A DNA stretch of 33,621 nucleotides from Fimbriimonadaceae bacterium (GTDB lineage: Bacteria; Armatimonadota; Fimbriimonadia; Fimbriimonadales; Fimbriimonadaceae). Location: contig JAHBTC010000020.1 of assembly GCA_019638835.1 (NCBI GenBank), positions 1 to 33,621 on the forward strand, read 5' to 3'. This document shows positions 29,334 to 33,621 of the stretch, one piece after another. The translations under genes were made by a program, and so were the position numbers. Positions within the stretch are counted from its first letter, which is position 1. Every line of letters begins with the position of its first letter. The notes beneath the pieces were generated by a model that ran no database searches, had not been told where the DNA came from, and saw only the letters and a program-made list of their open reading frames with translations.

Positions 29334-29734
29334 TGCTCTGGCGCGAGGGATACAAACCGGAAGTATCGCGCGGCTGGCAACCGGCTGGCCCCGCCCTCAC
29401 TCCGGTGTGGCCGTGCCCCACCATCCTCGTCCCTGACGAAGACGACTGGCAAACCGCCGAAGTCTGGTGGCGACTCCTGGAAGCCGGGGCCCCCGGGCAA
29501 GCCGTTCTGGTCGGCGTGGGGTGGGAATGGAGCGAACTGCGGCAGGTGGTCGCCCCGAGCCGCCGGGCGAGAACTTATGTCTGCACAAGCAATGAGGCCG
29601 AGGCATTCGCCGGGTCACAAGTGACACGAACGATCTCCGTATGCCCCGGCCTCAAAGTGTTAGGTCCTCCTACGGAAGAGGTGTGGGAAGAGTTCCTGAA
29701 TCGGTTACGGGCCGACGGATTCGCCGCCCAATGA
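29333..29734 (+). CDS. Small conserved-looking protein of unknown function, coupled to AIM24 gene
   Basis: The 133-residue soluble protein has no family I recognise. It is unusually rich in Trp (residues 3, 16, 27, 41 and several more in WW/WEW pairs) and Pro. It shows an alternating helix/strand rhythm: QAVLVGVGWEWSELRQVV, ARTYVCTSNEAEAF, TISVCPGLKVLGPPTEEVW and a closing amphipathic helix WEEFLNRLRADGF. This would suit a small alpha/beta domain. ATG 29333 overlaps the AIM24 stop; TTG 29330 is the only other candidate. The last 30 nt overlap the 3' end of the convergent secreted-protein gene. Codon use looks like its neighbours, so it is probably a real gene. Confidence 0.65.
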   Translation: MLWREGYKPEVSRGWQPAGPALTPVWPCPTILVPDEDDWQTAEVWWRLLEAGAPGQAVLVGVGWEWSELRQVVAPSRRARTYVCTSNEAEAFAGSQVTRTISVCPGLKVLGPPTEEVWEEFLNRLRADGFAAQ

Positions 29735-30463
29735 GCGAGAACCGGGCGGCGGGATAAAGGTGAAGTTCGCCCCCGCAAATACGGTTCCGGCATGGACCGT
29801 AACGGGCCAAATATCTTCCTTGTACACCGTACCGTTGTTCACTTCGCGGTGCGTAACCCCAACCCATTTGCCTGCTAAGTCAAGGTGGTAGCTGGTTTCG
29901 CGCCACCAAGGATTGTTCGTCCGGACGATTACGTTATTGAGGTCGTCATGGCGAGTACCCGTGGAGAGATAAGGTGCCCATCGGGTTCCGCCGCGCTCAA
30001 AAACGTCGCTGCCCATTGCGGCGAGGAACGCCACAGGTGCAGGTGAACGGCGACGAAGCGCAAGGAACGCGCGCGTGAGGTGGTCGGGGAGTTGTCCGCT
30101 CGCATCCACCGTGCCGTAGCGGATAGAAGTGTAGGTGTTCTTGAGCGCGTCGTAAGTGATGAAAAACTGACCGTCGCCCACAATCCGATGAGTTCGAACC
30201 CCGTTCTCAAAATTCTCGGCTTCGAATCGCCAAACCGGATAGCCGGCGCTGATGTCCAACTGGATGGAAAGGCTCGCGACCACGGGGATCGTGGTGCTAC
30301 CAACCTGACGCGTACCGTCAAGGCCGAGGGCGAGTTCACCCGTTGAGCGGATTGCATCAATCGATGTGCGCAACTTGGATTCGGCAGTCTGGGCCGTACT
30401 CATTGCCGCCACCGCGAGGGTCGCGGCGAGCACGGCAATCCGTGTCCGGAACTGGACGGGCAT
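29705..30463 (-). CDS. Secreted protein of unknown function
   Basis: The 252-residue protein has a clear signal peptide: MPVQFRTRIAVLAATLAVAA followed by a small-residue stretch ending near Ala24-Gln25. There is no lipobox cysteine. The mature part has an alternating strand pattern: SLSIQLDISAGYPVWRFEAE, then HRIVGDGQFFITYDALKNTY, then WWRETSYHLDLAGKWVGVTH. This resembles LolA/LolB-like or DUF2092-like periplasmic beta-sheet proteins, but I cannot place it in a family with confidence. A TACGGT box ends 10 nt before ATG 30463 on the minus strand. The 3' end overlaps the preceding plus-strand gene by 30 nt. The gene borders the Rhs accessory segment. Confidence 0.75.
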   Translation of the reverse strand: MPVQFRTRIAVLAATLAVAAMSTAQTAESKLRTSIDAIRSTGELALGLDGTRQVGSTTIPVVASLSIQLDISAGYPVWRFEAENFENGVRTHRIVGDGQFFITYDALKNTYTSIRYGTVDASGQLPDHLTRAFLALRRRSPAPVAFLAAMGSDVFERGGTRWAPYLSTGTRHDDLNNVIVRTNNPWWRETSYHLDLAGKWVGVTHREVNNGTVYKEDIWPVTVHAGTVFAGANFTFIPPPGSRSLGGESVGP

Positions 30464-30553: not shown

Positions 30554-31744
30554 ATGGCGGCGTGTCTTGCACTCGCGGAGAAGGCAATGCCGCATTTGCG
30601 CCTCGTGCGCGGCGACCCCGCAGGCAACCGCATCGAAGACTCCATGCGCGGCAACGACTGGGATTACGATCTGCTCAACCGCATAACCGAATCCCCGACC
30701 GCGACGCACACCTACAACGCCGTCGGCGATCGCGTGGGCGACTCTTACACGGGCGGGACCAACACCTACACCTGGCGGCTGGGGATGCTGACGAAGTACG
30801 AAAGTTCGGCGGGCTCGGGGCTCGAAGTGGTCAACCTGTTCCGTGCGGACGGAATGCGGGTGTGGCGTCGTTCGACGGCGGGTTCGACGGTCCTCGTGAC
30901 GCGCACCGACTACGACGGGCAGATGCCGGTATACGAGCAGCAGTTCCAGAGCGGGGTGCATACCTGGAAGCGGTGGAACGCCCTGGGTGCTCGCGGGATT
31001 GACGCCTTCTACAACTCGACTTCCTCTTCTTGGCTGTATCCCATTTACGACGTGCATGGGAACGTGAAGGCGACGCTTACTCGTTCTGGAGGCACGGGCT
31101 ACGCGACGGCGAACTGGAAGCAGTACGATGTTTGGGGCGGGGAAAGATCGTCTACCGGCTCCGGTTCCATGTTCGGCTACTGCGGCAACCTTGGACATCC
31201 CACGGACCCTGAGAATGGCCTGATCTACATGCGGGCTCGGTTCTATGAGCCGTGGACGGGGAGGTTCTTGAGTGAGGATGAGGCAACAGATGGTTCAAAC
31301 TGGTATGTCTATTGTTCAAGTGCGCCTACGACCAGGTCTGATCCTGATGGAAATCTATCTATCCCAATTTACATGCCTTTGAACACAATTCTTCAGATGC
31401 TGGCATTCGTCTTCGGGGCCCTTCTAATGAACTGGGACATGAACTATGGGGCGGCATTCGAGCGGATTGGAAGCCACATGATGCAGATCACATCAATGAT
31501 GAGGGCAGGGCTTATGGACAAATCTGAAGGTATGGACGACTTGATGAGGATGCACAAGGATTTGCAGAAAGTGAGGGGTTCTTGGAATCGGGCTCAATCC
31601 CTCAATCGTGTCAAAGCAAAAACCTCTCTTTCCGTGATTGGTAATTCTCTGGTTCTGAGGGCCCTACTGATGGATATAGAGTACGGCATAAATCGAAGCG
31701 GGCTTGATATTCTTAGTGAATATTATGTAAACAACGCCAACTAA
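30554..31744 (+). CDS. Truncated Rhs/YD-repeat protein: core end plus variable C-terminal tip (candidate orphan toxin)
   Basis: The 396-residue product begins in mid-repeat (DPAGNRIEDS, YDLLNRI, THTYNAVGDRVGDS). It continues to the hallmark Rhs-associated core end, with YDVHGNVKATL, NGLIYMRARFYEPWTGRFLSED and then DPDGN at 263-267. Full Rhs proteins carry an N-terminal delivery domain and many more repeats; all of this is missing, and a stop codon lies 9-12 nt upstream of the ATG. Residues 268-396 are the variable tip. A hydrophobic segment (about 276-294, TILQMLAFVFGALLMNW) is followed by a Met-rich helical stretch and the tail IEYGINRSGLDILSEYYVNN. No nuclease, deaminase or ADP-ribosyltransferase motif is recognised. 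Composition shifts from GC-rich in the core to AT-rich in the tip. The following gene, 5 nt downstream, is the candidate immunity gene. It could equally be a decaying remnant. Confidence 0.8.
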   Translation: MAACLALAEKAMPHLRLVRGDPAGNRIEDSMRGNDWDYDLLNRITESPTATHTYNAVGDRVGDSYTGGTNTYTWRLGMLTKYESSAGSGLEVVNLFRADGMRVWRRSTAGSTVLVTRTDYDGQMPVYEQQFQSGVHTWKRWNALGARGIDAFYNSTSSSWLYPIYDVHGNVKATLTRSGGTGYATANWKQYDVWGGERSSTGSGSMFGYCGNLGHPTDPENGLIYMRARFYEPWTGRFLSEDEATDGSNWYVYCSSAPTTRSDPDGNLSIPIYMPLNTILQMLAFVFGALLMNWDMNYGAAFERIGSHMMQITSMMRAGLMDKSEGMDDLMRMHKDLQKVRGSWNRAQSLNRVKAKTSLSVIGNSLVLRALLMDIEYGINRSGLDILSEYYVNNAN

Positions 31745-31749
31745 GCAAC

Positions 31750-32121
31750 ATGACAACATGGCCGTGCCCAATACTCTCAATAAAGGATCGCAAGATTTAT
31801 CATCTTATCGATCACATGCGTCAAAAGCAACAGATTCTGTTTAATAAATTTATGACACCAGATGTCAGGGCCAGGCAAGACCCGCTTGTTGTTGACGCAT
31901 TTTTGGAAATCGCCAGATCAACACGAAGTTTGCTAGTCTTACCAGTGCCTATGCTTAAAGTCTTTGCAGTCGGGAAGCCAGCCATGCCGTACTTCCTATC
32001 TGGACCAGTTTCATCTATTCCGAGAGAAATGGTGATAGCTTATTGTGACGACGATGAGCTAGTTGCACTATTTTTGGAAATTTATGAGACTGATGATAAA
32101 ATACACGATCTCATCAGTTAG
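31750..32121 (+). CDS. Small AT-rich gene, candidate immunity protein for the Rhs tip
   Basis: The 123-residue protein has no recognised family, signal peptide or membrane span. It has a helical N-terminal half (DRKIYHLIDHMRQKQQILFN, VVDAFLEIARST) and an acidic C-terminus (CDDDELVALFLEIYETDDKI). Small size, acidic tail and position directly after an Rhs tip are what is known for immunity proteins, which bind and neutralise the cognate tip in the cytoplasm. This assignment rests on synteny alone. Base composition differs strongly from the host genes: 20 of the 60 bases at 31801-31860 are G or C, against 35 of 60 at 30661-30720 in the Rhs core. This points to horizontal acquisition of the tip-plus-immunity module. 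No Shine-Dalgarno precedes ATG 31750, so translation may be coupled to the Rhs stop. Confidence 0.7.
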   Translation: MTTWPCPILSIKDRKIYHLIDHMRQKQQILFNKFMTPDVRARQDPLVVDAFLEIARSTRSLLVLPVPMLKVFAVGKPAMPYFLSGPVSSIPREMVIAYCDDDELVALFLEIYETDDKIHDLIS

Positions 32122-32150
32122 ATGGACAGCGCACGGGTACTAGATAAACA

Positions 32151-32179
32151 TTGACGTGTTAATCTGAATACTGTATACT
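32151..32179 (+). promoter_or_regulatory. Near-consensus sigma-70 promoter with no evident gene downstream
   Basis: TTGACG (32151-32156) and TATACT (32174-32179) are separated by exactly 17 nt, the best sigma-70 match in the window. Transcription would start near 32186. Downstream, the only open frame with an ATG soon after is a 12-codon peptide at 32218-32256, without a Shine-Dalgarno. A hairpin follows at 32286-32308. The product could be a small RNA, or the promoter may be left from acquired DNA. Confidence 0.6.
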
Positions 32180-32285
32180 TTTATCAACGACGACAACTAC
32201 ATAGTTTACGACCAAGAATGAGGATACTTGCGCTTTGCATGAAGCTACCTCATTGACTTGTGATGGCTTCCATGCGATTGTAACT

Positions 32286-32308
32286 CCTCAACCCTCGCCG
32301 GGTCGAGG
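32286..32308 (+). other. Stem-loop downstream of the orphan promoter
   Basis: CCTC-A-ACCC (32286-32294) pairs with GGGT-C-GAGG (32300-32308) around a 5-nt loop, with one A/C mismatch. It lies about 100-120 nt after the expected start of the 32151 promoter, but no U-run follows. It could be the 3' structure of a small RNA or the flank of the repeat array. Confidence 0.35.
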
Positions 32309-32352
32309 ATAGCGTGAACGACGTGGATTATGCCCGGCTTGCCCCGCAATCC

Positions 32353-32637
32353 CGAGCCTTGCGTCAACTTCGTTTCCGCTCCCCCTCTTCTTTTCTCCCC
32401 CGCTGCCCGCTTCGCTCGGCGGGGGAGAGCTAGGGTTTTGGCACGCCTTGCGATGACGAGGCTTGCGTCAACTTCGTTTCCGGTCCCCCTCTTCTTTTCT
32501 CCCCCGCTGTCCGCTTTGCTCGGCGGGGGAGAGCTAGGGTTTTGGCACGCCGCGAAATGACGAGGCTTGCGTCAACTTCGTTTCCGCTCCCCCTTTTCTT
32601 TTCTCCCCCGCTGTCCGCTTTGCTCGGCGGGGGAGAG
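32353..32637. repeat. Tandem 104-bp intergenic repeat, 2.7 copies, each with a 10-bp hairpin
   Basis: Copies lie at 32353-32456, 32457-32560 and 32561-32637 (partial). The period is exactly 104, measured on TTGCGTCAACTT at 32359, 32463 and 32567. Each has the inverted repeat TCTCCCCCGC/GCGGGGGAGA around a 15-nt loop (32394-32403/32419-32428, 32498-32507/32523-32532, 32602-32611/32627-32636). Copies differ at only a few positions. This looks like a REP-type, non-coding repeat. The open frames that cross it (32330-32560, 32542-32748, 32567-32857) are products of the repeat, not genes. Confidence 0.9.
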
Positions 32638-32669
32638 ATCAGGTCAAGAATGGACCGGGGCCGCGCGTC

Positions 32670-32699
32670 GCGAGGAAGCCCCATCCCAACCTTCCTCGC
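32670..32699. repeat. 9-bp inverted repeat beyond the tandem array
   Basis: GCGAGGAAG (32670-32678) pairs with CTTCCTCGC (32691-32699) around a 12-nt loop. It lies in GC-rich DNA between the repeat array and thrS. No U-run follows. It may be a further repeat element or a transcript barrier protecting thrS from upstream reading. The rest of 32700-32853 shows nothing else I can support apart from the thrS ribosome site. Confidence 0.5.
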
Positions 32700-32853
32700 T
32701 GGCGGGCGGGGAGGATTTAGGTGGGGCACGGCGGTGGAGCGGATATAGAGAGTCAGGAAAACTTGATTCCTCAATCCTCTTCCCAGTCGAGCGAAATCAA
32801 AGCAAAGTAAACTTCAACCGACAACTGAATCGCGTTGTACGCGAGGTATTTCC

Positions 32854-33621
32854 ATGAGCTACGAACAATCACGCCTGTACGCCCTTCGCCACTCGGCCGC
32901 CCATCTTCTTGCGCAGGCGTTGACGGAGATCTATCCCGGAGTCAAGCTTGCCATTGGGCCACCGGTCGAAAACGGCTTCTATTACGACGTAGACCTCGAC
33001 GAGCCCCTGAAAGAAGAGGAACTCGCCCGCATCGAAAACAAGATGCGCGAACTCGCCAACCTCAAGCAACCCATTGTGCGTCGCGAAGCCGCAGATCGCG
33101 AGGATGCCAAGCGCATCATCCTTGAGGAAACGACGCTGGGCCAGGGCGAAGCAACCGCGCTTTACAAGCTTCAGTTGCTGGAGGCGATCCCCGAAGGCGA
33201 TCCAATCACGTTCTACGAGCAAAGAGCGACGGACAAGCAAGGCAAAGAACATGTGTTCATTGATCTTTGTCGCGGGCCACATATTGAGAATACCGAGGTA
33301 CTCAAGCACTTCAAGTTGATGTCGATTGCCGGTGCGTACTGGCGCGGCGACGTGAAGAACAAGCAACTCACCCGCGTCTACGGAACGGCTTTCGAGACGA
33401 AGGAAGAACTTGCGAACTACCTCAACTTCCTCGAAGAAGCCAAGAAGCGTGACCACCGTGTCCTTGGAAAGGAGTTGGGATTGTTCATGTTCAGTCCTCG
33501 TGTCGGTGCTGGGTTACCGCTATGGCTGCCGAAGGGAACGGTGCTCCGCGAGACGCTGAATGACTTCTTGCGCGAAGAGCAAGTAAGGCGTGGATACAAT
33601 GGAGTTGTTACGCCAAACATT
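32854..33621 (+). CDS. thrS: Threonyl-tRNA synthetase, N-terminal part (3' partial), lacking the TGS domain
   Basis: The frame stays open to the window end, giving 256 residues. It charges tRNA-Thr. The protein starts directly in the N2 editing domain. HSAAHLLAQAL (residues 13-23) supplies the HxxxH pair, and GVKLAIGPPVENGFYYD and the DLCRGPHIENT motif (Cys/His of the editing site) follow. The catalytic core then begins with DHRVLGKELGLFMFSPRVGAG and GLPLWLPKGTVLRETL. The usual ~60-residue N-terminal TGS domain is absent. No in-frame extension upstream is likely, because ATG 32854 has a proper GAGGT site 7 nt before it. No T-box-like leader is recognised. Confidence 0.95.
   Translation, partial: MSYEQSRLYALRHSAAHLLAQALTEIYPGVKLAIGPPVENGFYYDVDLDEPLKEEELARIENKMRELANLKQPIVRREAADREDAKRIILEETTLGQGEATALYKLQLLEAIPEGDPITFYEQRATDKQGKEHVFIDLCRGPHIENTEVLKHFKLMSIAGAYWRGDVKNKQLTRVYGTAFETKEELANYLNFLEEAKKRDHRVLGKELGLFMFSPRVGAGLPLWLPKGTVLRETLNDFLREEQVRRGYNGVVTPNI

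What the first reader, a model, noticed from the sequence alone, without database searches (positions are those of the whole stretch)
32151..32308. Best promoter in the window drives no visible gene: possible small RNA
TTGACG-17 nt-TATACT is close to consensus, while genes in this window generally lack recognisable -35 boxes. Downstream there is only a 12-codon frame and a hairpin at 32286-32308 before the repeat array. Its place just after the Rhs/immunity pair suggests a small RNA, an antisense-acting regulator elsewhere, or a relic promoter of acquired DNA.
Basis: partly seen in the sequence, partly recalled or inferred. Interest (0 to 1): 0.55.

Follow-up and report, generated by a model that had tools for sequence, protein, structure and literature searches.

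The report
Stranded promoter behind an acquired Rhs module
A textbook-looking promoter sits in a stretch of acquired bacterial DNA and faces no gene; the evidence fits a leftover or accidental start signal better than a new small RNA, which is not excluded.

Summary
In detail: TTGACG-17-TATACT (32151-32179, +) is the best sigma70-type site in the window and in 317 kb of its genome, and no gene starts within 675 nt. The small-RNA reading gains little. (1) The 2.4 kb between a divergent gene and thrS is an insertion: 9 of 24 relatives have the two genes 61-123 bp apart. (2) The segment has no DNA relative in 290 other genomes of the phylum, so covariation cannot be tested. (3) Promoters of this clade have a -10 but no -35, so the good -35 is foreign in style; Rhs arrays hold -10 words at the chance rate (45 seen, 46.1 expected), the genome at large depletes them (26 against 47.2). 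(4) The 32286-32308 hairpin belongs to a dispersed REP-like palindrome family (17 sites here) and is no terminator. A strong 73-nt hairpin (32218-32290, z -5.5) keeps a small RNA possible (about 15%). By-product: thrS leaders here carry a tRNA-Thr anticodon-arm mimic on the ribosome-binding site.

The parts
32151..32156 (+). -35-like hexamer TTGACG
   Evidence: such -35 boxes are absent from 27 clade promoters
32174..32179 (+). -10-like hexamer TATACT; predicted start near 32186
   Evidence: start site is inferred, not observed
32218..32256 (+). 12-codon frame, no homologue sought
32218..32290 (+). strong imperfect hairpin (-28.3 kcal/mol, z -5.5)
   Evidence: 16 of 13,719 windows from 8 stretches score lower, collapsing to about 10 places; most of these lie at or between gene ends
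32286..32308 (.). palindrome CCTCAACCC-N5-GGGTCGAGG, member of a dispersed family; this copy lacks the GTAG tag
30554..31744 (+). truncated Rhs core tip plus C-terminal toxin-like domain
   Evidence: TIGR03696 62.5 bits; core hits in 50 of 61 genomes; C-terminal domain homologue in G024
31750..32121 (+). putative immunity gene, no homologue found
   Evidence: the weak G040 hit is antisense to an ECF-sigma-like gene
32336..32647 (.). three 104-bp tandem repeats, each with a GC-rich hairpin
   Evidence: two partial copies elsewhere in the genome
29705..30463 (-). divergent gene X, next to thrS in relatives (left side of the insertion)
32854..33621 (+). thrS (threonyl-tRNA synthetase), runs off the contig
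32808..32813 (+). candidate -10 of thrS (TAAACT)
   Evidence: position matches -10 hexamers of relatives' leaders
32830..32844 (+). thrS leader hairpin with tRNA-Thr anticodon-like loop (GUUGUAC)

Best explanation
A promoter-like sequence stranded in acquired DNA. A low-GC Rhs C-terminal/immunity module, with its tail (32122-32285), was inserted between gene X and thrS. The TTGACG/TATACT pair belongs to that tail. It is either a fortuitous sigma70-like match of the kind common in AT-rich acquired DNA, or the relic promoter of a following gene or Rhs module lost at the repeat-rich right border. If RNA polymerase uses it, it makes a non-coding transcript running into structured DNA: the hairpin at 32218-32290, then a REP-like palindrome, then the 104-bp repeats. 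Shown: the insertion, the lack of relatives of the segment, the -35-less style of clade promoters, the chance-level -10 content of Rhs arrays, the dispersed nature of the 32286 palindrome. Inferred: that it has no dedicated product.
For: Insertion: X and thrS are 61-123 bp apart in the 9 of 24 relatives with a recognisable X, 2390 bp here. GC falls from 0.62 (Rhs core) to 0.42-0.45 in the C-terminal part, immunity gene and gap, then rises to 0.63 in the repeats. No DNA relative of the segment: 0 of 60 other relatives, 0 convincing in 290 other genomes of the phylum, none in plasmids or phages. Host promoters lack a -35 (22 thrS leaders: median best -35 score -1.9 against -0.9 at random positions; 5 tRNA genes alike). 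TATAAT/TATACT is depleted in the genome at large (26 seen, 47.2 expected) but not in 148 kb of Rhs arrays (45 seen, 46.1 expected); the island is expected to hold 1.16 and holds 1. In those arrays 6 of the 11 intergenic -10s lie at most 21 nt before the next same-strand frame, so promoters between modules have precedent. The second-best site in the 317 kb overlaps a hairpin between convergent genes, so a high score alone predicts little.
Against: Both hexamers at the right spacing are rarer than the -10 alone: 16 of 1000 shuffles of the island, top of 317 kb. In this genome TATAAT/TATACT outside genes usually marks promoters: 18 of 26 sites are intergenic on 8.6% of the bases, and 15 of the other 17 intergenic ones have a same-strand frame within 262 nt. 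A strong hairpin stands about 32 nt after the predicted start. In about 150 kb of Rhs arrays several sites scored 12.0 or more, but none reached 13.16.
Confidence: 0.65

Rival explanations
1. A real small-RNA gene of about 100-125 nt riding with the Rhs module: start near 32186, body the 32218-32290 hairpin, end at or after the 32286-32308 hairpin.
For: Best promoter score in 317 kb; hairpin z -5.5 alone and -3.7 for the whole stretch, 0 of 200 shuffles each; rank 17 of 13,719 windows; none of the other 17 intergenic -10s in the sample is shown to be so far from a frame (two could not be judged at stretch ends).
Against: No relative anywhere, so no covariation. No Rfam match, also at relaxed threshold for 32000-32860. 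No U-tract terminator. Strong hairpins recur at gene ends in this genome and the stretch folds on both strands. The 73-nt window was chosen after folding, which inflates its z.
Confidence: 0.15
2. A distal promoter of thrS: the insertion separated thrS from its old upstream region, and this site now feeds thrS through a roughly 670-nt leader.
For: Same strand, no gene in between; the insertion did separate thrS from gene X. The thrS -10 candidate here, TAAACT, is weaker than that of many relatives.
Against: The conserved leader hairpin and a -10 at the usual distance remain directly before thrS; several strong hairpins lie between.
Confidence: 0.08
3. The relic promoter of a specific lost neighbour, the next orphan Rhs module of an array (a special case of the best explanation).
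For: Rhs modules stand in arrays in many relatives; 6 intergenic -10s directly precede the next frame there.
Against: No remnant of an Rhs core after the immunity gene.
Confidence: 0.12

Closest known systems
Spurious promoters in AT-rich horizontally acquired DNA (Warman et al. 2020, PMC7229825; abstract and section list seen)
   Same: A -10-like match in DNA of lower GC than the host, facing no gene.
   Different: Here a -35 match is present too, and the host is not an enterobacterium; no transcription data.
REP palindromes and RAYT (Y1) transposases (PMC3733652; three passages seen)
   Same: The 32286-32308 palindrome belongs to a multi-copy extragenic family; 8 of 15 own-genome copies carry GTAG; copies flank Y1_Tnp genes in G008, G015 and G052.
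   Different: The window copy has no GTAG tag, and no Y1_Tnp gene was found in this genome.
Rhs orphan C-terminal/immunity modules (kind recalled; no paper read)
   Same: Rhs core tip, divergent C-terminal domain, small downstream gene, low GC.
   Different: Single truncated module between X and thrS; immunity gene without homologues.

Membership tests
Sigma70-type promoter | -35 and -10 hexamers near consensus, spacing 16-18 | tested here: met
   10 of 12 positions, spacing 17
Sigma70-type promoter | resembles promoters of its own clade | tested here: inconclusive
   the -10 does, the -35 does not: 27 clade promoters lack one
Sigma70-type promoter | transcription starts there | not testable with these tools
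   no RNA data
Small RNA gene | conserved structure with compensatory changes | tested here: inconclusive
   no relative to align
Small RNA gene | intrinsic terminator at the end | tested here: not met
   no U-tract after 32308; none called there
Small RNA gene | match to a described RNA family | tested here: not met
   Rfam 15, none at gathering score; relaxed search only weak hits outside the segment
REP element | short palindrome, many extragenic copies in the genome | tested here: met
   17 sites, control pattern 0; nearly all copies viewed lie between frames
REP element | GTAG/GGAG-type tag at one end | tested here: not met
   window copy has AACT and ATAG on its two sides; 8 of 15 other own copies have GTAG
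REP element | RAYT (Y1_Tnp) gene in the genome | tested here: not met
   0 in G000; present and flanked by the palindrome in G008, G015, G052
Rhs protein | Rhs-associated core domain | tested here: met
   TIGR03696, 62.5 bits, cut-off 32.5

The most novel reading that the evidence does not exclude
A small structured RNA gene travels as a third part of the Rhs toxin/immunity module, with its own promoter, and acts on the module's mRNA or on the recipient, making it a mobile RNA component of a contact-dependent competition system.
Probability: 0.1. Interest if true: 0.65.

Novelty: new member of a known kind. Interest (0 to 1): 0.3.

Why it matters
It shows that a near-consensus E. coli-type promoter is a poor guide in a clade whose own promoters lack a -35, and that acquired Rhs DNA is not yet cleared of -10-like words as the rest of the genome is. 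If the small RNA were real, Rhs modules would have an unrecognised RNA part. The thrS leader noticed on the way may matter more: it suggests that anticodon mimicry for control of thrS exists far from E. coli.

Tried and rejected
Rejected: (a) 32286-32308 as the terminator of a small RNA: dispersed palindrome, no U-tract. (b) An immunity homologue in G040: it is the antisense of an ECF-sigma-like gene. (c) An immunity homologue in G008: BLASTP none, shuffle test 353 of 500 at least as good. (d) A regular promoter after immunity genes of Rhs arrays: sites scoring 10.5 or more fall on both strands and in varied places. (e) Similarity of the segment to flanks of own palindromes: the first score (50) came from masked N matching N; the corrected best was 29, equal to the largest of 100 shuffles, not pursued. 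(f) Rfam families, integron attC site, retron: no Rfam match; the latter two only by eye. (g) Related loci of the immunity protein and of the C-terminal domain in genome contigs: none.

Failed or partial runs: one search timed out and was repeated smaller; one search printed its table and then crashed before an expectation, which computed. The whole-window shuffle used 100 shuffles only. A tblastn of the C-terminal domain and immunity protein against the fetched loci gave nothing; the G024 homologue rests on the shuffle test. Frames are a crude longest-frame choice, not annotation. One search used 8 of the 21 stretches.

Full report
What was checked. Dinucleotide shuffles reach that score in 7 of 100 cases for the whole window, 16 of 1000 for the low-GC island and 5 of 1000 for the gap. 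The site is therefore unusual, but one such match somewhere is not astonishing. No same-strand frame of 90 codons or more starts for 675 nt; the 12-codon frame is at 32218-32256.

Where it lies. Gene X (29705-30463, minus strand) is found beside thrS in 9 of 24 relatives whose thrS flank I read, 61 to 123 bp from the thrS start. In the other 15, X was not recognisable. Here the distance is 2390 bp. The extra DNA holds a truncated Rhs core tip (TIGR03696), a low-GC C-terminal domain, a small gene in the place of an immunity gene, the segment in question, a palindrome and three 104-bp repeats. This is best read as an insertion in the lineage of this genome. The exact borders are not resolved.

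Conservation. The segment has no match in 60 other relatives, and in 290 other genomes of the phylum only short hits, many of them on the palindrome 32286-32308. BLAST at DNA level would miss a strongly diverged RNA. The C-terminal domain has a homologue in G024 (score 71, 0 of 500 shuffles) and G024 resembles G008 (0 of 500), while the window against G008 directly is not significant (42 of 500). The immunity gene has no homologue.

The hairpin of the finding. The palindrome CCTCRACCC-N5-GGGTYGAGG with up to one mismatch has 17 sites in this genome, 17 in G008, 8 in G019 and 5 in G015; in all 10 of 61 genomes have it, and the reversed control gives none in those four (one control site each in G010 and G021). 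Of 15 own copies looked at, 8 are preceded by GTAG and 3 by TTAG. In G008, G015 and G052 the palindromes stand on both sides of a Y1_Tnp gene. This is the picture of REP elements and their RAYT transposases (PMC3733652, passages). The window copy has no tag and the genome has no Y1_Tnp hit, so I call it REP-like, not a REP.

The stronger hairpin. RNA of 32218-32290 folds at -28.3 kcal/mol (z -5.5, 0 of 200 shuffles). The stretch was chosen after folding. Against 13,718 other windows of 73 nt from 8 stretches, 16 score lower after correction for GC, which fall into about 10 places; most of these lie at or between gene ends. The whole stretch 32186-32330 has z -3.7, and both strands fold. It is a real outlier of the kind often found at gene ends.

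Is it a promoter of this organism? The leaders of thrS give promoters supported by comparison. In 22 leaders the median -10 score at the expected place is 5.7, while the best -35 has a median of -1.9 against -0.9 at random upstream positions; none reaches 4 (one is 4.0 after rounding), against 4.3% of random positions; 5 tRNA genes look alike. Four of the 22 have no good -10 in the searched interval (L024, L025, L026, L027). The site has -35 6.0 and -10 7.1. So its -10 is of local style, its -35 is not. In the genome sample TATAAT/TATACT occurs 26 times against 47.2 expected, 18 of the 26 between frames, and 15 of the other 17 intergenic ones have a same-strand frame within 262 nt. This speaks for a working promoter. 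But in 148 kb of Rhs arrays (23 loci, 22 from relatives) the same words occur 45 times against 46.1 expected, 34 of them inside frames: such DNA has not been cleared of them, and the window site lies in such DNA (expected 1.16 in the island, seen 1). In 6 of the 11 intergenic cases there the -10 lies at most 21 nt before the next same-strand frame, so a relic promoter of a lost next module is a concrete version of the best explanation.

Verdict. A promoter-like site stranded in acquired Rhs DNA, fortuitous or relic, at 0.65. A small RNA gene stays possible at 0.15. The literature on spurious promoters in AT-rich acquired genes (PMC7229825, abstract) covers the kind. A search for 'Armatimonad', 'Fimbriimonas' and 'small RNA', two of three terms needed, listed 15 of 54 papers, and none of those 15 held the words 'small RNA'. 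That these genomes are Fimbriimonadia-like Armatimonadota is a guess from memory; no call named the organism.

By-product: thrS leaders. In 22 of 25 thrS upstream regions (window included; missing in G001, G002 and G040) a 4-bp hairpin with a 7-nt loop lies on the ribosome-binding site. My pattern fixed U33, G35 and U36; position 34, left free, is U in 10, G in 8, C in 4 and A in none, so the loops read UGU, GGU, CGU, the threonine anticodons. All 88 cells of the stem pair; two of four pairs change on both sides (UA to CG in 3, CG to GC in 4), 0 of 500 shuffles reach the covariation score, though the count of pairs with double changes is reached in 123 of 500. With the loop dinucleotide left free, hairpins of this form in all fetched DNA have GU 33 times and any other pair at most 4 times (loci overlap in part and the thrS leaders are among them). 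A model of the leader finds the place directly before thrS in G052 (E 2.4e-8) and G039 (E 0.004), neither used to build it, and not in most other genomes outside the family. In E. coli free ThrRS binds two hairpins of its mRNA and blocks the 30S subunit (PMC3858243, passages); that one of them mimics the anticodon arm is recalled. Here one hairpin contains part of the Shine-Dalgarno sequence itself. The searches listed no paper whose title or abstract start describes this for these bacteria. One result against: the single-sequence fold of 32810-32853 in the window prefers another structure.

Noticed in passing
window 32807-32849; L023-L045: thrS leader with a tRNA-Thr anticodon-arm mimic overlapping the Shine-Dalgarno sequence: 22 of 25 thrS upstream regions, loops UGU 10, GGU 8, CGU 4. 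Suggests ThrRS autoregulation by mimicry outside the E. coli lineage.
   Followed up: partly
22 thrS leaders and tRNA genes in L145, L147, L152, L155, L157: Promoters of this clade show a -10 but no -35 above random; TATAAT/TATACT is depleted in the genome and concentrated between genes.
   Followed up: partly
L060, L063, L104 and G000 loci L096-L103: A REP-like palindrome family with GTAG-type tags and Y1 transposase genes flanked by it in G008, G015 and G052; G000 has the palindromes but no Y1_Tnp hit.
   Followed up: partly
window 32336-32647: Three 104-bp tandem repeats with GC-rich hairpins upstream of thrS; partial copies at G000:C197 33365 and 18634.
   Followed up: partly
L096-L098: Some own palindromes follow GGAGGTTACAATATGAGTCGGGGTAG, so a ribosome-binding site and a 13-codon frame run through the hairpin in those copies.
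   Followed up: no
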